Source of the DNA: a virus
DNA: 64,000 nucleotides
IMG/VR virus record: IMGVR_UViG_3300042197_002946
Location: 86,337 to 150,336 of that record
Strand: one strand, 5' to 3'
Shown here: in pieces, positions 2,539 through 57,793 of the stretch
Layout of the letters: every line of letters begins with the position of its first letter
Position numbering within the stretch: the first letter of the stretch is position 1
Program-made: the position numbers and the translations under genes
The notes under the pieces: model-generated
Told to the model about the DNA's origin: nothing
The model's database searches: none
The model's input: only the letters and a program-made list of their open reading frames with translations

Positions 2539-5500
2539 TGAGAATAGCAGTAAATTATAATGATCTTATACAATATCCATTAACTATTTATAGAGTTGGT
2601 GGAGAATTTACACTAAGAAATGTATCTAATGGTACATTAATTACTCTACCTATAGGATACTCAGATAATTTATCTATTTCTAGTCCTATACTGGTTGGTA
2701 CCGTAGAAGACACATTTAATAATTTTACATATTCCTACGAAGATATTATTGAAAAAGCTCAATTTGAGCATCCTGGCTATACTCAATTAGTATATGCTAG
2801 CTTAGAGTTGGTAATGTTAGATGCTTACTATAAGGTTGTTGCTTATTTAACAACCAATAATACCGGAGCATATGCTCCCACACTTATAGGTCCAGGATAT
2901 CGTGCAACCATCGAATTCGGTAACTTACCACAGATAGATAGCTGTTATGGTCCTGATGACTATTGGGTAATAGGAAAAAAAGATGACAGTAGTGTTTTTA
3001 ATAATATTACGCCATATTCGGTTATAGAACCTGTTTTATTGGTTACGCCCACGCCCACTCCCAGTGCTACCCCCACACTAACGCCAACGATTACACAAAC
3101 CACAACACCTACTTTAACTGCTACTAGTACTCAGACTCCTACGCGAACTCCGGGACCTACCAGATCTCCTACAACAACACCGACAGCATCTATTACTCCA
3201 ACTCGCACTCAAACCACAACGCCCACATCTACTAGTACAGTTACTCCCACCCCAACTACTACAACTACATTAACTCAGTCCAGCACCCCGACTCTCACAC
3301 CAACGCCAACATCCACAACCACACTTACTGCAACACAAACTACCACACCAACACCGACTACCACACCCACATTAACTCCTAGTTTAACTGCTACATCTAC
3401 TCCTACTCCTAGTATTACCACTACTCACACACCCACACAAACTCGTACACCTACTGTTACTCCCACTCCAACAGCATTAGAATCTAACGTACTAGTATGG
3501 GGAGATAATTCTTATAGTCAATTAGGTATGGGGTATTTGCTCAACGATAGGTTTATTGATCCTCCACGCTTAGGAGAACAAACTAATAATAGACTAGCCA
3601 ACTATCAGAATATTTTGAATTATAGAGAAGACGGCACAGATAGTGTTGTTTATTTTAATGCAGTATCCGCGGGTTCTAATTTTAGCGTAGGCATAGATGT
3701 CAGCGGTTCTTTGCATAGCGTTGGGGTTAATGCATGGGGGCAATTAGGATTAGGTAACTTTGAAAGCAAATCAATGTTTACTCGTATCTCCGACCCTTCA
3801 CTTAATGGTGTAGTATTCAAACAAATTAGTTTAGGTAATATGCACGCCATAGCATTAGATTCTGATGGTAATGCATGGTCATGGGGTCGTAATTCCGATG
3901 GTCAATTAGGTAATCATTATTTACCAAGACCAATTAACTCTATGACTACTATTGATTCGGATATTAATTTGTATGATTTTGTAATCAGCTACGATGTAAC
4001 AGATGAGTTTTCATTAAATGACGAAGTTCTGATTGATTATTATAGCGGATCCATACATAAAACTAGTGTTGGTAGAGTATGGACATCTCCTACCTTCAGC
4101 AATAATGAAACAACGATTAGAGTACAGTGGGAAAATTATGAATCTATAGATTTCAGTATAGTCCCTACATTATTATCAAAAACCAAAGTAGATATTGATC
4201 CTGGTTTATTGGCCAACCCTACTCCTAGAAAAATATATGCTTATAAAGAATACAGATATTGCATAGATAATGATACTGTATTTTTTGCTACTCCAACACC
4301 CACACCCACCGTTAGTTACACTACAACAACCACCCCCACCATAACAGCAACGACTACTCCGTCCACAACCACGACGCTTACAGCTACTCCTACCAATACT
4401 TCCACCAATACTCTAACTCCAACTCCTACAGTTAGTCAATCTCCTTCACCGTCGGCATCTCCTGGTCAAACACCCACACCAACGGCCACGCCTACTTCTA
4501 CAACAACTTTGACAGCTACTCCTACAGCTACTTTGACTCTTAGTGCTACTCGTACACAAACCCCCACCAATAGTCCCACGCCGTCTACAACAGTCAGTGT
4601 TACTCCAACAAGCTCAGTAACTCCCACAAATACATCGACTGTTACTCCAACGATGACGGTTACTCCGACCAAGGAAGCTTTCCCTGTGTTAACAATATAT
4701 GGAGACATTAGATCTATTTTAACTAATAGCAATAAATCTACTGTCATGTTGAATGTATACGATGAAAATTCTAGTCCTGCATTGTTATATAAAGCTAAAA
4801 TTCTGGATGTTGAGTGGTTATCAAATTTTGGAATAACCAAAGTTCGTATCGATCATCCAATGATATCAACTATTGATCCCAAAAAGATGAAATATGTTTC
4901 TATTGTTCGCTTTAATAATGGATCCTCTTACGAATACGAATCTTTTGCTAGAGTACATGCCGGAGAGTCACACTCCATGGCTCTTGATACTAATGGCCGT
5001 TTGTTTGTATGCGGTAGTAACAAGTATGGGCAGCTGGGTCTTGGTTTAATTCAAGAGCTAGACGACGCTAGAGAACTACGCCTAGTGAATGGCAAACCAG
5101 TAGTTCGTATTGGATTAACTACAACAATGAAATTAGTGAATCCTCCTCCTGGACGAGGCTATTGTTATAATAGAGGATTTAAATGGAAAAAGATATCCTT
5201 GGGTCGTTTTCATACGCTAGCTTTAGATGCTTTAGGTCAATTATGGGTCTGGGGAGACAATGATTTCGGACAGCTAGGCTTGGGAGACTCTACAACACTA
5301 TTAGCCAAGGCTATTGTGGTACAGGAAAATTATCCTTCTATTGGAAGCATAGGAGAAAGAGACTTGCCAGATAGAGCTAATGTTGTTATTCCATATTCTC
5401 CATTACCATTTAAAATTTATGTATTGCAAGACAACTATTCTGATGTACAAAACCAAAGCATTGAAACAGACTATTGGTTGGATATTGCTGCAGGAGCTTA

Positions 5501-6062
5501 TCATAATCTAGCTATTAAGAAAGAATTTTCTAGTATAACATCTTACGGTTCATTATGGGCGTGGGGCGATAATACTTTTGGTCAATTAGCTAGAGTAAAT
5601 ACTTCTCCCAAGATTGTAGCTACCAACGCTAACGAAATAGATATATCTCAAGTAGATTTCGGTTTTGTTAACAACGATAATAGTCGTAACTATTGGAAGA
5701 GGGTTTATGCTGGTCGTATAACATCATTTGCTTTGAAATCAACTGATGGTAAACTATATTCTTGGGGCGAAAGTAATCTAGGTCAAACCGGTAATGTTAC
5801 ATCTAGAGCAGCTTTAGCTAGTTCTATACGTAATATTCCATCGGTTGTGAATCTGCCAAGAATACCTTTTGAATTACCCACCAGCGCTAGCGGCCCATGG
5901 GGTATTATTAATGTAAGCAATGATGTGGATCAAATAGATAATATTGGTATAGGACATTTGGCTAATCATATATTAGTGATACCAAATAGATTATTTCCCA
6001 CGCCAACACCGACGCCTAGTGTGACGGCATCGATCACGCCCACGCCGTCATCTAGTGGATAG
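2538..6062 (+). CDS. RCC1 propeller protein interrupted by Pro/Thr-rich linkers
   Basis: The protein has 1174 residues. ATG is in a TAATG overlap with the previous gene, with AAAGGA six bases upstream. Residues 1-168 are an unrecognised N-terminal domain, followed by a Pro/Thr linker (about 170-312). Seven RCC1 blades can then be counted, but they are split 3+4: after GRNSDGQLG an insertion of about 360 residues carries a beta-rich segment, a second Pro/Thr linker and another small domain, before blades resume at [18 protein letters not shown]. Seven blades would close one RCC1 propeller, so the insertion probably projects from its face. A short third Pro/Thr tract ends the protein. Inference: a long, probably surface-exposed tail protein that may be glycosylated on its many Thr residues. 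No enzyme motif was seen. Confidence 0.8.
3045..3472 (+). repeat. Pro/Thr-rich low-complexity linker, copy 1
   Basis: About 143 codons of Thr and Pro in [10 protein letters not shown] and TATST patterns, with Ser, Gln, Arg and Val interspersed. Codons for the same residues vary (act, aca, acg, acc; ccc, cct, cca, ccg), so this is a protein-level repeat and not simple DNA slippage. It links the N-terminal domain to the first RCC1 blade. Confidence 0.9.
4290..4671 (+). repeat. Pro/Thr-rich low-complexity linker, copy 2
   Basis: About 127 codons of the same Thr/Pro character as the tract at 3045-3472, lying within the insertion that interrupts the RCC1 propeller. Codon choice is mixed, as in copy 1. 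Confidence 0.9.
5997..6059 (+). repeat. Pro/Thr-rich C-terminal tail, copy 3
   Basis: Twenty-one codons ([20 protein letters not shown]) close the protein just before its stop. Third positions are richer in G and C (acg, ccg, gcg) than in the two longer tracts. Confidence 0.8.
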
Positions 6063-6097
6063 TATATAATTTACAAATTATTATATAGGATATAATT

Positions 6098-8164
6098 ATG
6101 GGAGTAAAGATATGGTATGATGGAGTAGATCTGAGTAAGTTCGGACCTACACCATTTATCAACATGAGTAAAACAACCAATAGAGATAGTGCTAATGTAC
6201 ATATCTTATCAGAGACTATTAATATTACCATAGAGGGTAAAATCACTGCTTATAAAAAAGGAGTAAGTGAAGCGAGCCATAAGCCAGGAATAGATCGATT
6301 ATTAGAAGATGAAAAACAATTACGTCATTTATTTAGTAGAGATGGGGTTTTGGTGGTCTCGTGCGCTCCTGATAATACAACTCAAACTTTTGCTACCGCT
6401 TTTTCTGCTGGAAAATTTGGATTTAATTGGGATGACCAAGTTCGTTCTGCTACTGGTGCTATTGGCAAAGGTTTAGTATGCAAGGTTACCAACTATCAAA
6501 TATCTAAAACAGAAGACAATTGGGTACAGAGTATTGATTATTCTATTGAATTACAATGTAGTCATTCTAAAAACGCCACTCTACCACATGCTCTCAGCTA
6601 TACTATTAGTAGTTATAGTGACGAATGGACGATAGAGCCAATAGAAGACACTTCTTACTATCATTTACAAGTACTCAACAATAACCCTAATACTGCCACA
6701 TCCGCACCTAATTGGCCAGCAGGAGTTAATAAATTGGATAATTTAATTCAGTTTAGAATAAGTCATAGATTAAGTGCTCAGGGCTTGTCTGCTCCTACTG
6801 GACAATATTCGGCCGGAAATGCTCCTGGTTCGACTAGCAACCACAACGAATCTGCCTGGTATAATGCAAAAAGATTTATCGAAGAACATTTAAAAATGCC
6901 CCATAATAATATTAATCATGTATTTTTGGCATATAACAATGGAGGATTTGGTCAACATAGCTATACTACAGAGGGAAATGTTACAGGTGGCAAATCGCAA
7001 GCTGAAGAAATATATTTATATAATCATGTAAGAGCTGTAAATGTAAGCGAATCTAACGGAACTTATGACTTAACAGATACGTGGTTAGCGCTAAGTAAGC
7101 CAACACACTATTTAGAAGATTATAGTGTTGAGGTTACGCAAGACACTAATTTTAATGTTACTGCTAGAATTAATGGTAGTGTACAAGGATTGGAAATTAA
7201 AAAAGCAGGATATCAACAGGGAGCACCTATGGGACAGACAACTAATCATAATGGCTATAATGGTAGCACTACATTAGGATTAGATTTTAGTAAAATTGAT
7301 TTACAAAACATGAATGAGGGTGCTATCTATGCAACTAAATATACTAATGCTTTGGAAGCTTGGAGAAATTATGTGGAACCATTATTATATGCTAGAACTA
7401 ATAGTTTAGCTATGTATATGGTTCAGGGGCATACTACGACTGTTCCTGCTGGTAGTAATGATATAGGTAATACAAAGACCCCATTGGCAAGGAGCGTATG
7501 GAATGGAGCTACTGCTGCGGTGACTGATGGAGGTACCTTTCAGATTAGATATCCTCAGAATAATGCTGGTACGTGTGATTATATAGACAAAAAAGAAAAT
7601 ATTATTCTAGATACGCGATTTGTTAATAAAACTATAGGTAGCGATCCTAGTCGAGGCACCATAACATATAGTTGTGAATTTAATAATAGACGAGGAGCTA
7701 ACCAGCTCAAAGGAGCTACTATTTTATCTATGAGTATCCAAGACAGTAAACCGGCTGATGTTGTGGCAGAAATGTTTGTGTTAGGACGCAAAAGAGGGCC
7801 AATATTACAAGATACAGGAAGTAAAACAGCCAAAACACGACAAGTAAGTATTGAAGTACAAACACCAATACCAAGAAATATGGCAGAATTTGATATGAGA
7901 TATAGTGCTTGTCCAATGTGGACAGGAGGTATTGTTTATAAAGATCTTATGAATATTATAGATATGTTAAGACCAGTATTACCGGATACATGGACCCCTG
8001 TTAAATTAGAGGAACTAGCAGCAAAAGAGGCTGCTGCCGGTAGGTCTATTGCTTTGATTAATGGCTCGTATGCCGGACAGGTGTATATTAAATCAGACGA
8101 TGAAACATGGAACCCAATTGAAGGACGTTTTTCCAAGAATATTACTTGGGTTTATGATGCTTAA
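6098..8164 (+). CDS. Putative virion structural protein, 688 aa
   Basis: AGGA sits seven bases before the ATG, and the gene lies 35 bases after the RCC1 protein on the same strand. The N-terminus (GVKIWYDGVDLSKFGPTPF) reads like a beta-rich tail or baseplate component. Residues 30-165 contain alternating beta-type segments ending in SIDYSIELQCS. There are no membrane segments, signal peptide or catalytic motifs. Its position among very large proteins of one late-type operon is the main argument for a virion role. I do not recognise the family. Coding itself is clear; function is inference. Confidence 0.65.
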   Translation: MGVKIWYDGVDLSKFGPTPFINMSKTTNRDSANVHILSETINITIEGKITAYKKGVSEASHKPGIDRLLEDEKQLRHLFSRDGVLVVSCAPDNTTQTFATAFSAGKFGFNWDDQVRSATGAIGKGLVCKVTNYQISKTEDNWVQSIDYSIELQCSHSKNATLPHALSYTISSYSDEWTIEPIEDTSYYHLQVLNNNPNTATSAPNWPAGVNKLDNLIQFRISHRLSAQGLSAPTGQYSAGNAPGSTSNHNESAWYNAKRFIEEHLKMPHNNINHVFLAYNNGGFGQHSYTTEGNVTGGKSQAEEIYLYNHVRAVNVSESNGTYDLTDTWLALSKPTHYLEDYSVEVTQDTNFNVTARINGSVQGLEIKKAGYQQGAPMGQTTNHNGYNGSTTLGLDFSKIDLQNMNEGAIYATKYTNALEAWRNYVEPLLYARTNSLAMYMVQGHTTTVPAGSNDIGNTKTPLARSVWNGATAAVTDGGTFQIRYPQNNAGTCDYIDKKENIILDTRFVNKTIGSDPSRGTITYSCEFNNRRGANQLKGATILSMSIQDSKPADVVAEMFVLGRKRGPILQDTGSKTAKTRQVSIEVQTPIPRNMAEFDMRYSACPMWTGGIVYKDLMNIIDMLRPVLPDTWTPVKLEELAAKEAAAGRSIALINGSYAGQVYIKSDDETWNPIEGRFSKNITWVYDA

Positions 8165-8178
8165 TAAAAGGACAAGAC

Positions 8179-11100
8179 ATGACCTATGTGCCTCCGCCAG
8201 ATCCTCAGTGTAGCCCTGTTCCTTTAGGGGTACAACAGCCAGGACCTAATAACAATTATAGAACACATATTAGTAATTTTATGGCACCAGAAGGTGTTGA
8301 TCGGGTAACTCCTACGAAAACACCTGCCGTCCCCGCTCCTACGCCTACGCCAGGATCGCGCACTGCTCTAAATTTATGGGGTAATAATCCTAAACCACCT
8401 ATTGTTACTAAAACAGCAACTCAGACAGCTACTGCTTCTAATCCTATTAATCCTGTTGATGATCCAGCATCTATTGTTCCGCGAGGCAATATTGATACTG
8501 GCTTAGCTCTACCTAGTAATATATATGGGCCATATCCTCAAACTTTATTTTTAGGATGCAGCGTGGCTAGTTTTAATGTGAGTTTAGGTTGGGGTAATCA
8601 ACCATCCCAACTATCTGTAACACTGGTAGAAGACCCAAGTCCTCATTATACGATGACATACGATGGTGGCATATACCGTACAGCAGCAATAGCTCAGCAG
8701 TCTTCCGTAAATCACTACTATCAAACACTAAAACCATTAAGAAATGCTCAAGGAGTAGTCATAGAAGATGCTAAGGCTTATAAAACTAGAATAGCTTCTT
8801 TTTTAGACACAAATGGAAATGTAATAATTCCTGGCAAATTATTTTATCATTATAATACTACTTTAGGAAAAATCGAACAAAAATATTGGTTAGGACCAGA
8901 CCCAGGATTTATCGGTGGTCGTAATAAATTTCGTCGTGAAAACAGAGTAGTTACTGGTACAGATCCTATCACTGGTCAAACAAATGTTGAACTTGGCGAA
9001 ACTGTGGATATTATAGGATGTCCAGTATACTTTCAATTAGATGACTTCGTTTTTTGTGGCATTATTAAATCATGGAAGAGTATTAATTCTGGAACAGGTG
9101 GACGATCTTATACCGTAGATATAGAAGGTGCTAATGATATTGTTAATCAAGCTCAATTAATACTTAGTAATTATGCTGGTGGAGTATTTGTAAAAAGCAA
9201 TGATTCTCCACCTGCAGATGGAGATAGTAGACCCGCTATATCTGGACCATCTAACGATTTTTGGAATAGTGACGTAGATTTGGATACAGCTTTTCAGGGA
9301 AATGTGGGCTTGGATGGCAATATTCCTAATATTATAAATATATATGGCTTTTTGGAGGCTATGGCTCCAGGGGGTTTTGGAGGAGCAAATATTAATGATA
9401 GTGGAATTAAAACTAATAGTGTGATATATGCTTTAAATTATCTATTGGGTATACCCGTCACTTCGACCAATAAACCAGGAGAAACTACTCGCAGTGTGTT
9501 TAGTCCTTTTGGAGCTTTGGTTGGTCGTAGTCCAATGAGTGCTACGCCACGAGAAACTCCGGTTGATACTTTGCCCATGGTCATTTATACTACTAGCGGA
9601 GATGTGCCCAAGGCGAGAAACTCTATTCATCCCGTTAACCTTGGTCCTACTGGTAGCGCCCTAAGCTTTCCTCAAAGTAGAGTTAGAGAATCCTCTGCAA
9701 CAGGCAAATCTGTAGCTGGTACAGTATCGGGCTTTTTAGAGATCGGAGATGATGGCACAGTTTATAGAAACAGTGCTCCAGTTTCCGCAGACAATAGCGG
9801 TATAGAATATAACATTTTCGATTTTGGTCTTATACCGCCAGACGATATTAGTGCCACTATTCCTGTTGGCGGTAATAATGCTATTGTTAATCAGCAATAT
9901 AAACAATTATATTATTTGGATCTAGGGGAGCTACCTGTTGTACCCACGCAATTACGTACCGATTGTTCTCAGTCAGTTATAGATTTGAACTCTTTTATTA
10001 CTGAAATTTGTGATAAGTCTGGAGTGGACTTTTTTTATGAAATGTTATTTTTAAAGGTCTACAACAATTATCCTGCAATTAAAATTATCAAGCTACGCAC
10101 AGTATCTCGTAGGGTACAACCTTCGGATAGGAAGATATCTGATTATATAGCTAGACTAAGAGAGCAGAAGGTTGCTGTTAGTTCGGTGAGTTTAGGCAAA
10201 GAATACAATTCCTCCGCTAAGCCACGCACCATGTTAATAGGAGCTAAACAACAACGATTATTTCAAACCAAAAATTATGGATTGGCTTATAGAGCTAGTA
10301 ATTATCTATATGACACTATCAACAAAAGATTTATCAGCTACTCTGATAATGTTCGCAGTCATCCTCATGGTAAATTGCGTAACTATTATAGGATACCCAA
10401 TCCATCTTCTGTTCGAGATCCATTAGCCTTAAACAGAACCACAACAATCACTAGGTCTAATGAGAGACCAGTATCTAATTTTTATCTACAAGAGTCTTCT
10501 TGGAATTCTATTGATGGAGACAACGATATTTTTCCCGCTCGTGGCAATTATTATTTATCGAATTCTAATATTAGCACAACAACTACAGATACTTCAAATA
10601 TACCAACTAAATTAACTCTATCCAGCATAAAATACTCTGATGTGTTTATAGAACACATAGCTAAAACACTATTCTCATGGGCGCACTCCTCTTTCGTAAG
10701 CTCCTCACAGGATCATACTCTGACCCGTACTCTTCATCAGGCCCTAGCTTTTTGGATTACCTCATATACCGGAGCTAGTCCGTTCGAAACATCATCATCC
10801 AATAATAGTCGTAATGCTGGAACAGAAGCTACTATTTTATCTAACTTTGCTCGCGCCATAGCAGAAATAGGATATAATGTTTGGAATACTAGAAATAACA
10901 GTCATTATTTTAAAAATAGACTACAGTATTTAGTTAATAAAGATGTGCCATGGTTTAGAGATGATGGATTTACCAGATTCTTCCCTATTATGTATAATAG
11001 TATTTGTCCATATTTTGGCACTGTGGATTATATCGATAAAACCAAAACCCAATACGTTACTGTTGATAAAACGCGCAAGCCTCGTCCAGTTTGGTTTGAT

Positions 11101-32717: not shown

Positions 32718-32745
32718 ATTATAAGAATGAGGCGTCGAGTGTCAA
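32718..32745 (-). promoter_or_regulatory. Consensus sigma70-type promoter for ssb
   Basis: Reading the minus strand: TTGACA (32745-32740), a 16-base spacer, TATAAT (32723-32718), then the ssb SD and ATG about 45 bases further on. Both hexamers match the bacterial consensus exactly. The -35 box overlaps the end of the polymerase C-terminal gene. Confidence 0.9.
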
Positions 32746-34367
32746 GATTCTGGTATAAAACACTTTTCCACAATCAAACCGCTGCCAGCCTTTTTAGATT
32801 TGGTACCTATAAATACCAACACTTCGTTTTCTTTTAATAGATCTTTAAACTCACCATATTGTTCTGGAAACATTACTACAGAATCCAAACCTCCTGAGCT
32901 ATCAAAAATCTCCAGAAAGGACATATTCGCCCCTTTATTTTTTCCTTGTTTGGTTTTGATCACACTTAACCTACTAATCTCTCCCATGATAGCAACCTTT
33001 TTTCCTCCAGTTACTCCTTGAAAGTCTTTGCAAGATATCAAATTAGACTCATAATTTTGCATATAACAATCTGTTTTAGTGCATGTCAAAGGAATACCTA
33101 ATAATGCTGCTTCGGTCTCTGCTATCCACTGCATATTATCTTTTAATGAATATGGTGGATGGTCTATGCTATTGATAAATTCTTGTATTAGTACTTGTCT
33201 CTTTTTTGTTACTTTACATGTGGTTAATAGTTTGATAAAAACATCTTTAAATTTGATGCTTGTGATATCTATATTATTAGTTGTGATTTGTTCTAATTCT
33301 TTTTTAGTTAGCTTATTAAGCATTTCTAAATAAAATAGTAGCTCTGTTCTAGGTATTTTATAGTCATCGAAAGCCCCTACGGAAACAATCGCCTTTGCTG
33401 CTGCACTATTAACATTGGTCAATAATCTACAAAACGTTGGTATTATTCCAGTTATATTTTTATTTATTAAATCCAAATGCAACTTTTCAATTGCTTCGTA
33501 TACCGATTCCCCCACTCCTTTAATATTAGTAAGTCCAAAATAAATTTTATTATCAATAATAGTAAATTCTTTGTTCATAAATTTAAATTTAGGTAATAAA
33601 ACCTCTATATTCATGGAACTAGCATTGTGTACCAACTCTTTAATTTCTTGATGTGGGTCTATTTTATCTTTAGCAAATCTTAGGTAGGAGACAAAAAAGA
33701 TCTGTGGAAAATGTGCCTTAGCATATGCTGATAAATAACCATTGATAGCATAGCTAATAGCATGACTTTTATTAAAAGAATATCTTTGGCTTTTTTCAAT
33801 CCATCCGAAAATTTCTTCTGCCTCATGAGCATTAACGATACCCTTAGTATTACAGCCATTGATAAAAACTGTTTTCAACTTGGCCATCTCTTCTGGTTTT
33901 TTCTTACCAATGGCTTTTCTTAACATGTCGGCTTCTTGTAAATCAAACCCAGCCAACTCCTGTGCTATTTGCATACTTTGTTCTTGATAAACCATTTCTC
34001 CATATGTGGTTTCGAGAATATTTTTTAGACTGGGGTTATAATAGTCTATACTCTCTTGTCCATTTTTTCTATCAATGAAATGATTACTAACGCTCTTGCC
34101 TTCTCGAATAGCCTCTAGACATCCTGGTCTCATAATGCTAATCAAGCCAGCCAGTTGCTCTATATTTTCTGGCTTTAGCTTTTTCGCCATGCTCTGACCT
34201 AGTCTAGACTCTAATTGAAAACATCCCTTAGTATTACCATCGGATATTAATTCCCAAGTTCTAGAACAGTCTAGAGGAATAGAGTTTACGTCAAACTCTA
34301 ACAATTCTGTATTTTCGCTGTCTACAGGAAACTTACAGCCACAATCAAACTGATAATATTTTGTCAT
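32742..34367 (-). CDS. dnaE: DNA polymerase III alpha, C-terminal piece (split DnaE)
   Basis: The protein has 541 residues. After a leader containing FDCGCKFPV, the sequence enters DnaE at the point just past the palm: NSIPLDCSRTWELISDGNTK, then CFQLESRLGQSMAKKLKPEN, ISIMRPG and MVYQEQSMQIAQELAGF. YSFNKSHAISYAINGYL near residue 195 is the fingers region. A C-terminal OB fold (VAIMGEISRLSVIKTK, then FLEIFDSS) is present near 460-530. It has none of the three palm aspartates, which lie in the piece at 37783-39657. The start is in an ATGA overlap with the exonuclease. The two pieces must associate to make a polymerase. The assignment is firm; assembly is inference. Confidence 0.93.
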   Translation of the reverse strand: MTKYYQFDCGCKFPVDSENTELLEFDVNSIPLDCSRTWELISDGNTKGCFQLESRLGQSMAKKLKPENIEQLAGLISIMRPGCLEAIREGKSVSNHFIDRKNGQESIDYYNPSLKNILETTYGEMVYQEQSMQIAQELAGFDLQEADMLRKAIGKKKPEEMAKLKTVFINGCNTKGIVNAHEAEEIFGWIEKSQRYSFNKSHAISYAINGYLSAYAKAHFPQIFFVSYLRFAKDKIDPHQEIKELVHNASSMNIEVLLPKFKFMNKEFTIIDNKIYFGLTNIKGVGESVYEAIEKLHLDLINKNITGIIPTFCRLLTNVNSAAAKAIVSVGAFDDYKIPRTELLFYLEMLNKLTKKELEQITTNNIDITSIKFKDVFIKLLTTCKVTKKRQVLIQEFINSIDHPPYSLKDNMQWIAETEAALLGIPLTCTKTDCYMQNYESNLISCKDFQGVTGGKKVAIMGEISRLSVIKTKQGKNKGANMSFLEIFDSSGGLDSVVMFPEQYGEFKDLLKENEVLVFIGTKSKKAGSGLIVEKCFIPES

Positions 34368-37628: not shown

Positions 37629-37811
37629 CTATTTTATTGTGACAGTAGCATTGTCCGGAATAAAAGTCTTTTCTCCGCTACTCACAACAACAGCATTGAG
37701 CTTTCTACAACAAGATACTCTAACTTCTGGTGTTTTTCTGTATTCAGTATTGTTGTGAATAAAGACGGTGTCTATAGTAATATTAGCAAATGTTGTTTGA
37801 TGTTCCGACAT
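37629..37811 (-). CDS. Small conserved-looking protein, 60 aa
   Basis: AAAGGG stands about eight bases before the ATG, and the start lies 29 bases inside the end of the polymerase N-terminal gene. The sequence is beta-rich (FANITIDTVFIHNNTEYRKT, then CCRKLNAVVVSSGEKTFIP): a hydrophobic core, the Tyr-x-Lys turn and an Asn-Ala-Val strand, as in short phage proteins of unknown function. It is one of the genes separating the two polymerase pieces. Confidence 0.65.
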   Translation of the reverse strand: MSEHQTTFANITIDTVFIHNNTEYRKTPEVRVSCCRKLNAVVVSSGEKTFIPDNATVTIK

Positions 37812-39657
37812 AGTTATTTCCCTTTAATAAAGATTGAATACACATAATTTTATCTAACATACCAATACCTAGAATGTCAAACTTTACTATACCAAGAGAT
37901 TCTAAATCTTGCATTTCCATACCTGCAATACTATTTCCGGTCTTAGAATCATACACCATTGGACATATTCCATCTAGATTATGGGCTGATATCGCAATAC
38001 CGGCTGCGTGTTTAGATTGATTTGATTTGGTTCCTTCTAATCTAATAGCTTGCTCAAAGCGTTTTGCAAACAAGCCCGATATTGAGCCGTCATCATTAAT
38101 TTGGCACCAATCTTTAAATTTATCTGGAGTATTCTCTAAGGCCCATTGAATAATGGAAGATTCTCCTCTATCTTCTTTCATTTCTTGAAGATCATCCGCT
38201 ATCTTCGCTTCGTCCGGAATGTTTTTAGTAATTTGATTCATTTCCTCATAAGATAAACCTCCATATACTCTCAACACCTCTTTTAAGGCGCCTCTTCCTT
38301 TCATAGTATTAAATGTAATCATCTGAGATACCTTATGAGTCCCATACTTATTTTTAATATAGCCAATAACATTATCTCTTGTTGTCATAGGCACATCGAT
38401 ATCAATATCTGGCATAGATATTCTATCAGTAGAATTTCTTCCAGCATTATAGAATCTCTCAAAAAGCAAATCATATTTAATAGGATCTATATTGGTAATT
38501 TCTAATAAATAAGATACCAAACAACCAGCAGCACTTCCTCGACCCGGACCAGGAAGCCAAGAATTTGTTCTAATATAATTTACAATGTCTTGAACGATTA
38601 AAAAATATCCAGACAAGTTAGCCCCTTGTAATACAGATAGTTCCTGTTTGATCCTGTCTGCATAAATTTTTTGGTCTTCTTCGGATATTTTGGTAAAACC
38701 ACGTTTTCTCCATCCATCTCTACATAATTGTCTTAAGTATTCATCCTCATTATCTATAAATTGTGGTAGTTGAGGTCTATTAAGAATATTGTATTCTTCA
38801 CACATATCAGCTACTAAATTAGTATTACGCAATTCTTCTTCTGTGTGTAAATTTCTCATTTCCTCATCAGACAAAATATAGAAATTATCGGACTTAAAAA
38901 AGCAGCCAAGAGGCACATCTTCATTATTAATAATCTTTTTATTAATTTCTGGGAAAGTGGTTTTAAGAGTATTACAAAGCAGAACTCTTTGATCTATAGC
39001 GTCCTCTTTGTTGGCATAGTGGGCATCGGGAGTGGCTACTACTTTTAATTGGTGCTTTTTAGCTAAGCTGCGAATAATATCTGTCAGAGTAATTTGGAAT
39101 GGTAAATGATCTTTATCCATTAATTGGGCTTCTAAAAATAATCCGTCAGACCCAAAAATAGACTTTAATTGATCTATTAATAAACTAGCTGGATTCAAAT
39201 CTGATCCATTATTTATGATATCGGCCAAGTTAGAGCCCATGTGACCAGTAATACAGATCAGTCCGGACGTATCCAGGTCTTCGAGTTCGTTTATGCTGAT
39301 CCTGGGCTTTCTATAAAATCTGCTTGGGTCGTTTGATGCAGAAACTAAACTGATAAGGTTTTTCCAGCCTTGGATGTTTTTTGCCAGCACCAACATGTGA
39401 GATAATTGACCGTTATCTTTGTGCTGATTTGTGGACTTGTCTTTACAAATATATAATTCGCACCCTAGAATAGGCTTAATTCCTTGCTTTTTCATAGCCT
39501 GATAAAATGACACAGCTCCAGAGATAGAGCCGTGATCTGTAATAGCACAGGCTGATGACCCTATGTCAGCGCATCTTTTAGCGATCTGTTCGGGCTTACT
39601 GAGTCCGTCTAATAATGAGTAGTGGGAGTGTGTATGAAGAGAGATATATGATGACAT
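37783..39657 (-). CDS. dnaE: DNA polymerase III alpha, N-terminal piece with PHP domain and complete palm (split DnaE)
   Basis: The protein has 624 residues. The PHP domain opens with SLHTHSHYSLLDG (H8, H10), then ITDHGSI, GCELYI, an internal GHMGSN and TPDAHYA, so most metal ligands are present and the domain may be active. The palm has GRGSAAGCLVSYLL, MPDIDIDVP near residue 415 (first two catalytic Asp) and GIVKFDILGIGMLDKI near 592 (third Asp). The protein stops about 30 residues later, where an ordinary DnaE runs on into the fingers. Added to the 541-residue piece the total is 1165, about the size of E. coli DnaE (1160). No intein splicing motif was seen at the end. Confidence 0.93.
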   Translation of the reverse strand: MSSYISLHTHSHYSLLDGLSKPEQIAKRCADIGSSACAITDHGSISGAVSFYQAMKKQGIKPILGCELYICKDKSTNQHKDNGQLSHMLVLAKNIQGWKNLISLVSASNDPSRFYRKPRISINELEDLDTSGLICITGHMGSNLADIINNGSDLNPASLLIDQLKSIFGSDGLFLEAQLMDKDHLPFQITLTDIIRSLAKKHQLKVVATPDAHYANKEDAIDQRVLLCNTLKTTFPEINKKIINNEDVPLGCFFKSDNFYILSDEEMRNLHTEEELRNTNLVADMCEEYNILNRPQLPQFIDNEDEYLRQLCRDGWRKRGFTKISEEDQKIYADRIKQELSVLQGANLSGYFLIVQDIVNYIRTNSWLPGPGRGSAAGCLVSYLLEITNIDPIKYDLLFERFYNAGRNSTDRISMPDIDIDVPMTTRDNVIGYIKNKYGTHKVSQMITFNTMKGRGALKEVLRVYGGLSYEEMNQITKNIPDEAKIADDLQEMKEDRGESSIIQWALENTPDKFKDWCQINDDGSISGLFAKRFEQAIRLEGTKSNQSKHAAGIAISAHNLDGICPMVYDSKTGNSIAGMEMQDLESLGIVKFDILGIGMLDKIMCIQSLLKGNNYVGTSNNIC

Positions 39658-52848: not shown

Positions 52849-53136
52849 TTAATCTTTGTATGGAATCCAGTGTTTTCGCACAAAAACCATATTGATAAAA
52901 AACCCACAAAAGGCGCTCAAAACATTGCTGACTATTGGCTGAGTCGTATCCTGTAATGGGTTTAACCAAATACTTAACAACAGACTAATCCAGAAACTAG
53001 CACACTCATGGCACAACAAAGGAGTTCGGACGTATGCTATTTTAGCAATAAGGTTACGTAAGGGTCTACTTGCTTCGGTATCACCCCAAGCATAAGACAA
53101 TCCCAAAGAACAAAAAAGATAGATTAAAAAAATCAT
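52849..53136 (-). CDS. Small membrane protein, DUF1360-like
   Basis: The protein has 95 residues. A hydrophobic N-terminus (MIFLIYLFCSLGLSYAW) is followed by LLCHECASFWISLLLSIWL and an NVLSAFCGFFINMVF segment, so two or three membrane spans. The L-x-C-x-x-C-x-S-F-W motif and the preceding 'S-x-x-P-L-R-x-x-I' match the DUF1360 family of small phage and bacterial membrane proteins. Role unknown. It shares one base with the gene upstream (TAATG). Confidence 0.7.
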   Translation of the reverse strand: MIFLIYLFCSLGLSYAWGDTEASRPLRNLIAKIAYVRTPLLCHECASFWISLLLSIWLNPLQDTTQPIVSNVLSAFCGFFINMVFVRKHWIPYKD

Positions 53137-53375
53137 TATATAGGCTCGCAGGCAAAGCAGTACATAGTATTATCAGTCGGCGTAATGGTTGGAGTGCCCG
53201 CCGGAACCCCATATCCTGGAGAACAATAATTAGCTACAAATTCCCAAGAACTTCCACCACCACACGGACAACTACTTGGCCCATGATAAAAGTATTTGTA
53301 AATATTACTACTATTACAATCAGCTTTAGTAGTTAACATACTATAAATTGGACCATCACTATTATTATAAGTCAT
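53136..53375 (-). CDS. Short Cys-rich protein of the PI(F/Y)S family
   Basis: The protein has 79 residues. After a short arm comes DGPIYSMLTTKADC, the N-terminal motif shared with the proteins at 54273 and 54914. CPCGGGSSWEFVANYC and CFACEPI hold most of its seven Cys; a PTITPTDN stretch recalls the Thr/Pro linkers. No signal peptide. Possibly a minor virion decoration subunit. The start has AGAGA about nine bases upstream. Confidence 0.55.
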   Translation of the reverse strand: MTYNNSDGPIYSMLTTKADCNSSNIYKYFYHGPSSCPCGGGSSWEFVANYCSPGYGVPAGTPTITPTDNTMYCFACEPI

Positions 53376-53406: not shown

Positions 53407-53811
53407 CTATAAGAAATACACCACGACTCCATCATCTCGTTCTACAATGCTAAACATTCTAAACATCTTTCCTGGCAAAGTTGAGGCAAAATTCTGCCAA
53501 GATTCCTCACCTTTTGGAATAACAAACATTCGACCAGCATAATTATTGTTTTGTCTTTCTGCTTTAATTTTATCCATTTCTGTTTTTAAAGCATTAGGAT
53601 CCTTAACGTATTTATTCATTACTAAAGGATCTTTTTCTAGCTGTTCTGTAAAAAATTTGATTACTCGTCCTCGACATGTGCAGTTGGGATTATTTTTAAA
53701 TGTTACCAGATCAGCTAATATTGTTGAAAAATCATTTTGTAGTTGATTAAAAACACTGTCATCTTTAATAATAAAAGATAATGCGTCTCCTAATTGATCC
53801 ATAGAAATCAT
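53407..53811 (-). CDS. Hypothetical protein, 134 aa
   Basis: AGAGGA stands eight bases before the ATG. Mostly helical at the N-terminus (LGDALSFIIKDDSVFNQLQN), with a single CTC Cys pair in the middle, and beta-rich at the end (MFRMFSIVERDDGVVVYFL). The upstream region has a weak promoter-like pair. Unrecognised; coding looks real from the SD and length. Confidence 0.5.
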   Translation of the reverse strand: MISMDQLGDALSFIIKDDSVFNQLQNDFSTILADLVTFKNNPNCTCRGRVIKFFTEQLEKDPLVMNKYVKDPNALKTEMDKIKAERQNNNYAGRMFVIPKGEESWQNFASTLPGKMFRMFSIVERDDGVVVYFL

Positions 53812-53945: not shown

Positions 53946-54260
53946 TTAGCATGGAGCAGAAGGACAAGTCCCGTTACAGCACCCTGTGCGTATATTCGTT
54001 CCCCCCAGACCATAACAATAAGAACTATAATCCTCTTCTTCAGTCAAAAGGACATATGAATAGGTTTCTGGGGTACACGCAAAATATTTTCCGTCCTCGC
54101 GACTAAAATCTGCTCCAGTGTTTATGTACCCTGGCGGACAAGGATAATCAGCAAACCATTCAACTAAATATATAAAATTAGATGCGGAACTAGCAAGAAA
54201 AATATTAATTTTAGGCATTCCTGATTTTGAATAATTAACAACCACATACCACTGTTGCAT
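53946..54260 (-). CDS. Cys-rich small protein
   Basis: The protein has 104 residues. The N-terminal third is hydrophobic-polar beta (MQQWYVVVNYSKSGMPKINI), then a Cys-rich part (YPCPPGYINTG, CTPETYSYVLL) and a terminal CCNGTCPSAPC. No PI(F/Y)S motif, but composition and position match the neighbouring family. It lies 12 bases after, and in frame with, the stop of the 59-residue gene. Only a G-run sits directly before its ATG, so translation may depend on coupling. Confidence 0.5.
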   Translation of the reverse strand: MQQWYVVVNYSKSGMPKINIFLASSASNFIYLVEWFADYPCPPGYINTGADFSREDGKYFACTPETYSYVLLTEEEDYSSYCYGLGGTNIRTGCCNGTCPSAPC

Positions 54261-54272
54261 TCCCCCCGCCCG

Positions 54273-54452
54273 CTATTGGGGGCAGGCGCAGCAATACTCT
54301 GCGGCAAGATGATCCATGGCCTCGCTGACCCAAAAATTATAGCACTGTTGGTACGACGCGAAGGCCTGCGGCGCATTCGGATCCGTTGGCCAGTAAGAGC
54401 AGGAATACTGGCACTTCGCATCCAAATTACTAAAAATTGGTTCATCACTCAT
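54273..54452 (-). CDS. Very short Cys-rich protein of the PI(F/Y)S family, 59 aa
   Basis: ATG at 54452 has a strong SD (GGAGG, six bases away). The product begins SDEPIFSNLDAKCQYSC and ends in EYCCACPQ, with seven Cys and several Tyr and Trp. Its first codons share 14 identical bases with the gene at 54914-55324, so the family relation is visible in DNA. The in-frame stop is TAG at 54273-54275. Function unknown. Confidence 0.7.
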   Translation of the reverse strand: MSDEPIFSNLDAKCQYSCSYWPTDPNAPQAFASYQQCYNFWVSEAMDHLAAEYCCACPQ

Positions 54453-54887: not shown

Positions 54888-54915
54888 CTCTCCCTATCTG
54901 TAGGGAGAGTTTTTT
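54888..54915 (+). terminator. Rho-independent terminator of the HTH gene
   Basis: A perfect 9-bp stem CTCTCCCTA / TAGGGAGAG with loop TCTG is followed by six T. It begins 12 bases after the HTH stop. The T tract touches the stop codon of the opposite-strand gene at 54914. Confidence 0.93.
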
Positions 54916-55324
54916 ATACAGGAGTAAAAGTCAAACTTATACTCTGACTACCGCCGCCACAAGCAGAAATATTATTATTAGAACAGTCTGCTGAATAGCC
55001 CCATGTTTGCCAGCCACTTGAAGGAGGTGGAGAGTCTGGAGAACCAGAAACAAATGCTGCTGGGCCATATCCGCCCCAAAAAAACCATCCACTGATCAAA
55101 GGATAGATGCCACAATTACAAGGCCAATCTGTGAGATAAATAAAATAATAGTCTCCATAATCATTATCGCACCAACTCCCCCCAGGACAATAGCCATATG
55201 TATTATAAGTTAGATTGTTTGGATTGGTACTTTGAAGTTGATTCCAACCACTAGGAATCCCAGTCGCCACAAATCCATTAGGATATTTCCCACTCAAAAC
55301 GCTAAAAATTGGTTCGTTATTCAT
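54914..55324 (-). CDS. Cys/aromatic-rich protein of the PI(F/Y)S family, 136 aa
   Basis: The N-terminus NNEPIFSVLSGKY carries the family motif. The rest is rich in Gly, Ser, Trp, Tyr and Cys (YGYCPGGSWCDNDYG, DWPCNCGIYPLISG, WFFWGGYGPAAF), suggesting a compact disulphide- or stacking-stabilised fold. SD is weak and the gene overlaps the adenylate-forming-enzyme gene end by eight bases. No enzyme motif. A virion surface role is guesswork. Confidence 0.6.
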   Translation of the reverse strand: MNNEPIFSVLSGKYPNGFVATGIPSGWNQLQSTNPNNLTYNTYGYCPGGSWCDNDYGDYYFIYLTDWPCNCGIYPLISGWFFWGGYGPAAFVSGSPDSPPPSSGWQTWGYSADCSNNNISACGGGSQSISLTFTPV

Positions 55325-56519
55325 AAAAATTTATCTTATAATCTTGTACAATATGTTGTAAAGTCTGTTTTTCATCATCACTCAGCTTGTCTTTTATATA
55401 GATATTGGCACTCAAATTTTCAAACTGAACTTGGTCAATTTTACCTTTATACTCTAATACACCTATTTGTTTTTTTATTTCAGTTAGTTTTGTTGGCCCT
55501 TTTAGCGCAAATGGGCGATTTGCTAACATTTTGAACGGTCTATAATATCTTCCACATTCACACAATTTATAGTTGTTTTCTATCTCACATAGATCTCCGT
55601 TCCAATAGTTGATAAATGGAGCGCTCATATTGAAATAGTCTGTACTAATCATTTTATTATCTGGTCCTTGAGTTACCCAGCTTAAATTATCTAATAAATG
55701 ATATGTATGATATTTACATGTAAAGAATGTTGCTCCTCCATCCCAACACCTCATGTGATCACAAACATAATTAGCATATCCTCCATCCAGCATAATCTGT
55801 CGATCAGACTGTCTCATAAACTCACCAGTTTGACTAAATAAATAGCCTATTTTCATTTGTATATTATGTTTAACTAAATAATGAGATAAAAAACTCATAA
55901 TAGGACCAGTGATCATAACAATATCAAACGGCACCAAATCCCGTATATGTAACAATAATTTTTCTATCCATTGACTAGGATTTTCCATGTAATCATCAAA
56001 TCTCACAAAATATCTGGTACTATCTATACTTTTATGAGTATGTAGAGTGTATGGAGATGGTTCTTTTTGTTCATATATAAAATCTACATGATGTGGGTTA
56101 TATGCTAATTTTTTTAATATCAGTATGCGAGGATTCTTTTTTGTAATACCAAATTCGTCTAAGATCATGCCATAATGACACTCATCCTCTAGGAAATCTA
56201 TATGAGGTCTATAAACACCATAACTGAACGGCTCCCCAGAAGAGCTACCACTTGTATGGAAAAGTTGATTGTCTCTTTTTAAAGACTCTACAAACCATAG
56301 CTCTTTTTTCAGATTAGTTCTACTATACATATTTTGTATACTACTATAAACAGGGCTATGGATAGTAGCATAATTTGTTATATTGTGTATTAATTTATTG
56401 GCTATCTGTTTAATAATATCTGGATGATAGAATAATACTTTATTACATATTGCATAATATTGTGGTATTAGGTCGGGGCCGGTGTTGGGTAAAGATAAAA
56501 ATTGAGTAATTTCATTCAT
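55317..56519 (-). CDS. PaaK/CapK-like adenylate-forming enzyme
   Basis: The protein has 400 residues. LFHTSGSSSGEPFSYGVYR is the Thr/Ser-Gly P-loop of phenylacetate-CoA-ligase-type ANL enzymes. Further on, FINYWNGDLCEIENNYKL and CECGRYYRP match the 'Y-x-x-G-D-x...C-x-C-G-R' signature of PaaK and of CapK, a capsule-gene relative. It would activate a carboxylic acid with ATP. The C-terminal lid domain is shorter than usual. It is coupled by ATGA to a glycosyltransferase, so the acid may be attached to a sugar polymer. Unusual in a phage; motif evidence is good, substrate unknown. Confidence 0.75.
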   Translation of the reverse strand: MNEITQFLSLPNTGPDLIPQYYAICNKVLFYHPDIIKQIANKLIHNITNYATIHSPVYSSIQNMYSRTNLKKELWFVESLKRDNQLFHTSGSSSGEPFSYGVYRPHIDFLEDECHYGMILDEFGITKKNPRILILKKLAYNPHHVDFIYEQKEPSPYTLHTHKSIDSTRYFVRFDDYMENPSQWIEKLLLHIRDLVPFDIVMITGPIMSFLSHYLVKHNIQMKIGYLFSQTGEFMRQSDRQIMLDGGYANYVCDHMRCWDGGATFFTCKYHTYHLLDNLSWVTQGPDNKMISTDYFNMSAPFINYWNGDLCEIENNYKLCECGRYYRPFKMLANRPFALKGPTKLTEIKKQIGVLEYKGKIDQVQFENLSANIYIKDKLSDDEKQTLQHIVQDYKINFYE

Positions 56520-57793
56520 AGAACATCTGTCAAGCTATAAGTTTCCCATACCTCTTCTGTATTATTAGATACGTTGGATACGATATTGATAGAGCTAATA
56601 AATAGTCCCAATTCTCTACGATCCAATGGGGCGTCCATGCTTTTAGAACATTCGATACTGATACAGTAAGGGTCGTTATAGCTTAGGGTTTGTTCGCCGG
56701 ACTCTGCTAATTGAGAAATATTTATCAACTGGTTATTAATAAAGATTTCTATATTGCCTATGTCTTGTTGTCTATGTAGAGCCAGCCTTATTTTTTTAAT
56801 ATTATAGCAGTATATTGTTGTGTTGGGGGAGGTCCATAGAACCGTGGCGCTGTCAGGCGTATATTTAGATGATAATACAATAATTGGCTTGTCCTGTTTG
56901 GATATAGAGAGTCTATCTATAAAGAATTGTTTAAGTTGTTGTTGAGTAGATTCTTCGATAGTGTCATATAAATGATCCGCGTTCTGTTCAAAGGATGCAT
57001 TGCTTAAATTAGTTAATAAAGAATATCTATCGGTATAATTTCTATCATTCCAATACCCATGAAATAAATGGGTAATTTGATGATTTGCGTCAAAAGCAAT
57101 GTATGGAGATGTTTGCTGTTTCAAAAACTGATAACCTTTCGAAATATAGTCTATCATATCAGGGATAGTATCCTTTGTTACAGCATTAAACATATTAAAC
57201 GGTATCCCATGCGTACCAATATAAAACGGAGCTATATTGATGACGTCTCCCCCTCCTACAAAACAGCGATCAAAAAACCCTCCAGTATGCTTGAGATATT
57301 CTCTTCTATAAGCAACCAACAAGCCAGGATTACCGCCAGTCATTGTTGAGCTTGTACTACATATATCCACCAATCCATGATCTATTAAATCTATACCAAG
57401 AGTATCTAATAATAAATATTCAATAGTAGAATAGGGTTGCACCGCTACATATGTTGATAGTAGATTACAGGTATCGCTATACCAATTATTATTATTGCAT
57501 ATAATATCATTATCCATAGCTATAATGCCATCGTAGCTTGAAGGGATATTATTTAATAAATAGTTTAATGCAGCTTCTTTATGCCATAGATAGCTGTTAT
57601 TGCGCACTATCCAGTGATTGAAGTTAGAGCCATCAATCATAGACGGCATATTATCTGGCAATACTTCACAAACAAACAAATGTTTTAACAGATTTCGTTG
57701 TCTGAGTGAATATATAAAATGTTGCCAGTTGTTTTGGAAATATGGACTATCTCCATGATTAAATAATGTAGTTATAATCGCAGATCTGTACAT
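56516..57793 (-). CDS. GT-A glycosyltransferase with C-terminal extension
   Basis: The protein has 425 residues. The GT-A core has the first strand ITTLFNHGDSPYFQNNW, the metal-binding IIAMDNDIICNN (D-x-D), and the galactosyltransferase-like GNPGLLVAYRREYLKHTGGF followed by CFVGGGDVI. Residues about 300-425 form a separate beta-rich domain (YCYNIKKIRLALHRQQ, NIEIFINNQLINI) that may bind glycan. Coupled to the PaaK-like gene. Confidence 0.75.
   Translation of the reverse strand: MYRSAIITTLFNHGDSPYFQNNWQHFIYSLRQRNLLKHLFVCEVLPDNMPSMIDGSNFNHWIVRNNSYLWHKEAALNYLLNNIPSSYDGIIAMDNDIICNNNNWYSDTCNLLSTYVAVQPYSTIEYLLLDTLGIDLIDHGLVDICSTSSTMTGGNPGLLVAYRREYLKHTGGFFDRCFVGGGDVINIAPFYIGTHGIPFNMFNAVTKDTIPDMIDYISKGYQFLKQQTSPYIAFDANHQITHLFHGYWNDRNYTDRYSLLTNLSNASFEQNADHLYDTIEESTQQQLKQFFIDRLSISKQDKPIIVLSSKYTPDSATVLWTSPNTTIYCYNIKKIRLALHRQQDIGNIEIFINNQLINISQLAESGEQTLSYNDPYCISIECSKSMDAPLDRRELGLFISSINIVSNVSNNTEEVWETYSLTDVL

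What the first reader, a model, noticed from the sequence alone, without database searches (positions are those of the whole stretch)
55317..57793. PaaK/CapK-like adenylate-forming enzyme coupled to a glycosyltransferase in a phage
The ANL signature (HTSGSSSGEP, YWNGDL, CECGR) is clear and the two genes overlap by ATGA. CapK relatives occur in bacterial capsule loci, so the phage may acylate a sugar polymer on the host or virion.
Basis: partly seen in the sequence, partly recalled or inferred. Interest (0 to 1): 0.65.

Follow-up and report, generated by a model that had tools for sequence, protein, structure and literature searches.

The report
Phage PaaK-fold enzyme with tagged proteins
This large phage, and about 33 related virus contigs, carry a PaaK/CapK-shaped enzyme with a rewritten active site, usually beside a sugar-transfer enzyme and often just before a cysteine-rich, adhesin-like protein with a short shared N-terminal tag, so it probably builds or decorates the virus's own surface glycoproteins, though no activity has been measured.

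Summary
Both genes are real (55317-56519, 56516-57793, minus strand, ATGA overlap). The 400-aa protein has no Pfam, PHROGs or NCBIfam hit, but its ANL (adenylate-forming) fold is secure: the AlphaFold2 model's top 36 PDB matches are all PaaK-type (E down to 1e-16), profile-profile E = 9.5e-14, and the PaaK-family zinc site, P-loop and ribose-binding Asp are kept. Two catalytic elements are not: motif A5 (YGxTE) is replaced in all 23 aligned homologues by MRCWD, and the C-terminal catalytic Lys (A10) is absent. Adenylation is therefore inferred. Homologues: 33 viral contigs; none found in 84,980 bacterial/archaeal species or 50,697 deposited phages. The partner is a GT-A glycosyltransferase; a GT lies directly upstream in 15 of 24 loci, of at least three kinds, and one homologue is fused to a GT9 domain. 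A scan of 2.9 million viral contigs found the first tag only in these phages or probable fragments of them. Best reading: a virion-glycoprotein module; a new variant of a known kind. Host-polymer acylation is not excluded.

The parts
55317..56519 (-). PaaK/CapK-fold (ANL superfamily) protein, 400 aa; zinc ligands C268/H274/C320/C322, P-loop T89-G95, A7 Asp D309, rewritten A5 M256-D260 (MRCWD), no A10 Lys
   Evidence: zinc and nucleotide residues by comparison with NatL2/ClxA (PMC7204872; PMC12519233)
56516..57793 (-). GT-A-fold glycosyltransferase, 425 aa (DxD at D94/D96, GGGD 180-183), with a C-terminal beta domain; overlaps the ANL gene by ATGA
54914..55324 (-). Tagged Cys/Gly-rich protein, 136 aa (MNNEPIFSVLSGK...), start codon inside the 3' end of the ANL gene (8-nt overlap)
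54273..54452 (-). Second tagged Cys-rich protein, 59 aa (MSDEPIFSNLDAKCQYSC...), preceded by ATAATGGAGG (possible ribosome-binding site)
53946..54260 (-). Cys-rich protein, 104 aa, without the tag
53407..53811 (-). 134-aa protein with NPNCTCRGR motif; homologues lie shortly downstream of the ANL gene in L001, L005, L008, L009, L010 (46-62% identity); function unknown
53136..53375 (-). Third tagged Cys-rich protein, 79 aa (MTYNNSDGPIYSMLTTK...)
52849..53136 (-). 95-aa small hydrophobic, putative membrane protein (LLCHECASFW), resembling by eye a protein of the same module in L001, L005, L008, L010
59046..61211 (-). 721-aa tandem glycosyltransferase (GT4-like plus GT2), upstream in the same glycan gene run
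   Evidence: homologues next to the GT-ANL pair in L005 and L007; similar 715-aa proteins next to the GT in L059, L060
61195..61875 (-). 226-aa putative sulfotransferase-like protein (IPRCGGSSFRKSI), judged by eye only; no family hit
   Evidence: similar protein at the same place in L059, L060

Best explanation
The gene encodes a phage-specific, divergent member of the PaaK/CapK branch of the ANL fold that works with a glycosyltransferase on the phage's own surface glycoproteins. Proposed mechanism: the enzyme binds ATP and a carboxylic acid in the retained P-loop/A7 pocket, activates the acid as an acyl-adenylate, and passes it without CoA to a hydroxyl or amine of a sugar or glycoprotein, as NatL2 and ClxA do with aromatic acceptors. 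The neighbouring GT adds the sugar. The likely final substrates are the tagged, usually Cys-rich or lectin-like proteins encoded just downstream; their short N-terminal tag would be the recognition or docking element. Shown by computation: fold, zinc site, P-loop, A7 Asp, GT partnership, GT9 fusion, and restriction of the tag to these phages. Inferred: adenylation, the acid, the acceptor, and virion location.
For: Fold: top 36 PDB matches all PaaK-type, E down to 1e-16; hhalign E = 9.5e-14; the A1 profile matches the CapK-like protein of a Methanohalobium polysaccharide locus at E = 8.5e-5. Zinc site: invariant C268-x5-H274 and C320-x-C322 match NatL2's C248/H254/C308/C310 in spacing. Glycan link: GT directly upstream in 15 of 24 loci, of at least three kinds; in L021 the protein is fused to a GT9 heptosyltransferase domain and followed by a PfkB-kinase/cytidylyltransferase (HldE-like) protein; GlmS-like, GDP-mannose-dehydratase-like and epimerase genes lie nearby in several loci. 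Substrate link: tagged protein is the next gene downstream in 13 of 24 loci, often overlapping; the first tag was found only in these phages or probable fragments of them among 2.9 million viral contigs, and not as a comparable N-terminal tag in 84,980 species genomes. Several tagged or downstream proteins carry LamG, Stig1, DUF285 or PKD domains; the window, L001 and L010 tag proteins do not start with a recognisable signal peptide.
Against: The A10 lysine that contacts the alpha-phosphate in PaaK, NatL2 and ClxA is missing in all 23 homologues, and A5 is replaced by MRCWD, so canonical adenylation may not occur. In the closest relative, L001, the ANL gene has no adjacent GT; its GT homologue lies about 100 kb away. 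Several homologues (L006, L007, L009, L021, L024, L028, L030, L032) lack a tagged or Cys-rich downstream gene. In L018, L003 and L004 the downstream protein is Cys-containing but lacks the tag. There is no proteomic evidence that any tagged protein is in the virion.
Confidence: 0.45

Rival explanations
1. The ANL fold has been repurposed. With A5 rewritten to DHMRCWD and the A10 Lys lost, it binds a nucleotide or nucleotide-sugar but does other chemistry, or acts as a non-catalytic scaffold for the GT and the tagged protein.
For: Loss of A10 in all 23 homologues and replacement of A5, including the phosphate-binding Ser/Thr by Trp. No sequence-level family match.
Against: The P-loop and A7 Asp are kept in nearly all members, and 29 invariant columns, many in the ANL motif regions, argue for catalysis rather than scaffolding. 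The invariant Arg257 might replace the lysine (inference).
Confidence: 0.25
2. One reading: the GT-ANL pair modifies a host surface polymer (capsule or O-antigen), for example for superinfection exclusion.
For: CapK-like relatives occur in archaeal loci with GTs and epimerases; the phages carry sugar-nucleotide genes.
Against: Coupling to a phage-encoded tagged protein in 13 of 24 loci. No integrase or O-antigen flippase was noticed, though neither was searched for specifically. More distant relatives of the GT lie beside capsid-like and collagen-like genes.
Confidence: 0.18
3. Leader-directed protein modification: the ANL-fold enzyme recognises the ~10-residue N-terminal tag and modifies the tagged protein itself, for instance at the conserved tag Lys or the variable Cys/Gly/Ser-rich body.
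For: Tag conserved while the rest varies from 56 to >2,000 aa; different codons encode the same tag residues; multi-gene families per phage; restriction to ANL phages.
Against: Bodies of up to >2,000 aa are far larger than ordinary leader-directed peptides. The tag could equally dock the proteins on the virion.
Confidence: 0.1
4. The gene is bacterial contamination of the assembly.
For: None found.
Against: Gene-to-gene overlaps with phage neighbours; homologues in 33 viral contigs; none found in 84,980 species genomes.
Confidence: 0.01

Closest known systems
PaaK / CapK (COG1541-type) adenylate-forming enzymes, e.g. BT_0428 (4R1M, 4RVN), B. cenocepacia PaaK1 (2Y27)
   Same: Two-domain fold, P-loop, A7 Asp, zinc-type Cys/His pattern; position among glycosyltransferases in CapK-like loci
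   Different: 11-13% structural identity; A5 rewritten, A10 Lys absent, hinge DD lost; below every Pfam/NCBIfam threshold; found only in viruses in these searches
NatL2 / AjiA1 / ClxA PaaK-type ester and amide ligases (6SIX, 6WUQ, 9S3L)
   Same: Similar fold; matching spacing of zinc ligands; CoA-free acyl transfer is the proposed precedent
   Different: They keep the Tyr and Thr of A5 and supply the catalytic Lys from a swapped C-terminal extension (K418, K393); the phage proteins have neither
GT-A glycosyltransferases (GalNAc-T2, WrtF, chondroitin polymerase)
   Same: N-terminal GT-A fold and DxD in the 425-aa partner
   Different: No family hit; low TM-scores (about 0.35); extra C-terminal beta domain; donor and acceptor unknown

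Membership tests
ANL superfamily of adenylate-forming enzymes | Large N-terminal plus small C-terminal domain fold | tested here: met
   AF2 pLDDT 88.4, pTM 0.80; 291 PDB matches with E <= 0.001, top 36 PaaK-type
ANL superfamily of adenylate-forming enzymes | A3 P-loop, (T/S)SG(S/T)TG | tested here: met
   TSGSSSG in the window; kept in 20 of 23; L028 and L030 have a one-residue deletion, L032 is degenerate
ANL superfamily of adenylate-forming enzymes | A5 motif YGxTE | tested here: not met
   Replaced by invariant MRCWD in 23 of 23; only an acidic residue (D260) remains at the E position
ANL superfamily of adenylate-forming enzymes | A7 ribose-binding Asp (YxTGD) | tested here: met
   D309 in NYWNGD, invariant in 23; NatL2 D299 / ClxA D281
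ANL superfamily of adenylate-forming enzymes | A8 hinge GRxDDxIKxxG | tested here: inconclusive
   Arg (R335) in most and Lys in LKG, but DD replaced by PF
ANL superfamily of adenylate-forming enzymes | A10 catalytic Lys near the C-terminus | tested here: not met
   All 23 proteins lack a PRxxGKxxR-type tail; the PaaK set keeps the Lys in nearly all
ANL superfamily of adenylate-forming enzymes | Scores above the curated PF00501 threshold | tested here: not met
   No hit for the window protein; one of 23 homologues at E = 0.1
PaaK/CapK family | Profile similarity over the catalytic domain | tested here: met
   hhalign probability 98.1, E = 9.5e-14, 303 columns
PaaK/CapK family | Structural zinc site C-x5-H + CxC (as described for NatL2) | tested here: met
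   C268, H274, C320, C322 invariant; tested by sequence spacing only, no coordinates available
PaaK/CapK family | Acyl-adenylate formation and CoA or other acceptor ligation | not testable with these tools
   Needs an enzyme assay
NatL2/ClxA-type CoA-independent ligases | C-terminal extension supplying Lys to the partner monomer | tested here: not met
   No such extension in most members
GT-A glycosyltransferases (partner gene) | GT-A fold with DxD | tested here: met
   87 PDB matches with E <= 0.001, best ones mostly GTs; D94xD96 invariant
Leader-directed (RiPP-like) modification systems | Conserved N-terminal leader, short variable core, dedicated modifying enzyme | tested here: inconclusive
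   Leader-like tag and enzyme linkage found, but bodies reach >2,000 aa and no modification was observed

The most novel reading that the evidence does not exclude
A phage-only maturation system: an ANL-fold enzyme with a rewritten active site, working with a GT, recognises a ~10-residue N-terminal tag and covalently modifies or attaches a diverse set of Cys-rich and lectin-like phage surface proteins, including ones over 2,000 residues long.
Probability: 0.22. Interest if true: 0.85.

Novelty: new variant of a known kind. Interest (0 to 1): 0.6.

Why it matters
If right, large phages carry their own acid-activating step for building virion glycoconjugates, a step I found no phage report of in the paper searches made. 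The rewritten A5 and missing A10 Lys offer a natural test of which parts of the ANL active site adenylation really needs. The tag gives a simple sequence handle for finding variable surface proteins in large-phage genomes that homology searches miss.

Tried and rejected
Single-sequence PDB search gave only chance fatty-acid-binding-protein hits. No match in 50,697 phage records. Genome-contig scan for the ANL family found no relative; it relies on two conserved peptide patterns, so distant bacterial relatives could be missed. PaaK itself occurs in six phage records, two annotated paaK and four unannotated fecal contigs; these are hits to E. coli PaaK, not members of this family. Moraphage paper (PMC12619734) read as a possible match: several GTs, but no phenylacetate or AMP-binding mention. 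Jumbo-phage survey (PMC7824862): no AMP-binding mention in the terms searched. A phylum-wide bacterial profile search was not run because the tool needs a genome handle. The 5 tag-pattern hits in bacterial genomes were judged chance: none has the tag at the start of a Cys-rich ORF. Five viral contigs with the tag but no ANL hit carry tagged proteins identical to those of the G008 or L010 phages, so they are probably fragments of the same or near-identical genomes.

Full report
The observation. Two minus-strand ORFs, 55317-56519 (400 aa) and 56516-57793 (425 aa), overlap by ATGA. The record is a 150,336-base virus contig of which the window is the last 64 kb; DNA polymerase III alpha, DnaB, a Toprim-domain primase, RecA, a ribonucleotide reductase and head-protein matches show that it is a tailed-phage-type genome.

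The fold. Neither protein has a significant family hit. A scan of 2.9 million viral contigs found 33 homologues of the 400-aa protein, 31-63% identical, on contigs of up to 511 kb. Alignment A1 of 23 members has 29 invariant columns. The AF2 model (pLDDT 88.4, pTM 0.80) matched PDB entries of the PaaK type in all of its first 36 hits: BT_0428, ClxA, PaaK1, AjiA1, NatL2, PaaK2, 2-HIB-CoA ligase. TM-scores are about 0.5-0.6 and identities 9-17%, so it is a distant relative. Independently, an hhalign comparison with 11 PaaK-family proteins gave probability 98.1 and E = 9.5e-14. The A1 profile also matched a CapK-like protein in a Methanohalobium plasmid locus of glycosyltransferases and an epimerase (E = 8.5e-5).

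The active site. The PaaK-type zinc site is conserved: NatL2 uses C248, H254, C308 and C310 (PMC7204872), and the phage proteins have invariant C268, H274, C320 and C322 with the same C-x5-H and CxC spacing. The P-loop is kept in 20 of 23 and the A7 Asp in all. Two elements are not kept. A5 (YGLSE in PaaK) aligns to M256-R-C-W-D260, as the matching 8-residue distance to the first zinc Cys also suggests; MRCWD is invariant in 23 of 23. The C-terminal Lys that binds the alpha-phosphate (PaaK K422, NatL2 K418, ClxA K393) has no counterpart in the phage proteins, most of which end soon after the last strand of the small domain. So the fold is established; the canonical reaction is not.

The glycosyltransferase. 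The 425-aa partner has a GT-A fold with an invariant D94xD96 and a C-terminal beta domain. A GT lies directly upstream of the ANL gene in 15 of 24 loci (window, L003-L007, L010, L015, L016, L018, L020-L022, L027, L028), of at least three kinds. In L021 the ANL protein is fused to a GT9 heptosyltransferase domain and followed by a PfkB-plus-cytidylyltransferase (HldE-like) protein. These counts are over a locus set with some close relatives, so they are not independent. In the closest relative, L001, the ANL gene has no adjacent GT; its 425-aa GT homologue lies about 100 kb away, and there and in L060 the GT is followed directly by the dCMP deaminase and RNR genes without an ANL gene. This suggests, but does not prove, that the ANL gene and its downstream genes move as a cassette.

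The downstream tagged proteins. The gene immediately after the ANL gene (window 54914-55324, 8-nt overlap) starts MNNEPIFSVLSGK. In 13 of 24 loci the next gene carries such an N-terminal tag, in two forms (GPIYSVLxGK; LFSLxDK and similar), and is usually Cys-rich. L018, L003 and L004 have Cys-containing but untagged downstream proteins. The regular expression was drawn from these same loci, so its count among 2,004 ORFs (26 hits, of which I judge 23 real, all in these phages or fragments of them) is post hoc. The independent check was a DNA-pattern scan for GPIYSVLxGK of all viral contigs: 18 stretches on 12 contigs. Seven are ANL contigs; the other five lack an ANL hit but carry tagged proteins identical to those of the G008 or L010 phages, so they are probably fragments of those genomes. 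This scan samples three distinct phage groups, so the association is clean but rests on few lineages. A second pattern hit two contigs, both with ANL genes. The first pattern in 84,980 species genomes gave 5 hits, none at the start of a Cys-rich ORF. The tag codons differ between copies within L001, so the conservation is at protein level. Some tagged or downstream proteins carry LamG (L018, untagged), Stig1 (L022), or DUF285/PKD (L017) domains.

Interpretation. The fold, the GT pairing, the GT9 fusion and the tagged proteins point to a module for building phage surface glycoproteins. Whether the ANL-fold enzyme acylates a sugar, acylates the protein, or does something else with a nucleotide is open.

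Noticed in passing
L057:1968-3272 (-) and L058:3185-4444 (-), record IMGVR_UViG_3300032334_002567 (G008): This 381-kb record has four ANL-like paralogues; the two divergent ones sit by a methyltransferase-like gene, and by a Radical_SAM protein (L058:1704-3188) with an HTTM-domain protein (L058:64-897) and a 204-aa ORF, an arrangement reminiscent of a peptide-modification cluster.
   Followed up: partly
window 32742-34367 and 37783-39657: DNA polymerase III alpha appears split: an N-terminal PHP/NTPase part (PF02811, PF07733) and a separate part matching phrog_405 positions 622-1074, with two ORFs between, one matching regulator-of-chromosome-condensation PHROGs.
   Followed up: no
L010:12501-14108: A 535-aa protein starting with SLTVESLENRKLLS, resembling N-termini common in Planctomycetes (from memory), might hint at the host of some of these phages.
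   Followed up: no
L068 (IMGVR_UViG_3300024352_000020) 3735-9389: A distant relative of the 425-aa GT lies near a capsid-like protein, a sulfotransferase-like protein (both by eye) and a collagen-like (GxxGxxG) protein.
   Followed up: no
window 53407-53811 and 52849-53136: Two small proteins of unknown function recur shortly downstream of the ANL gene in several related phages.
   Followed up: partly
window 82-6062: Two long proteins match PHROGs labelled regulator of chromosome condensation; the first also matches phrog_25852 and phrog_613 (virion structural and head proteins).
   Followed up: no
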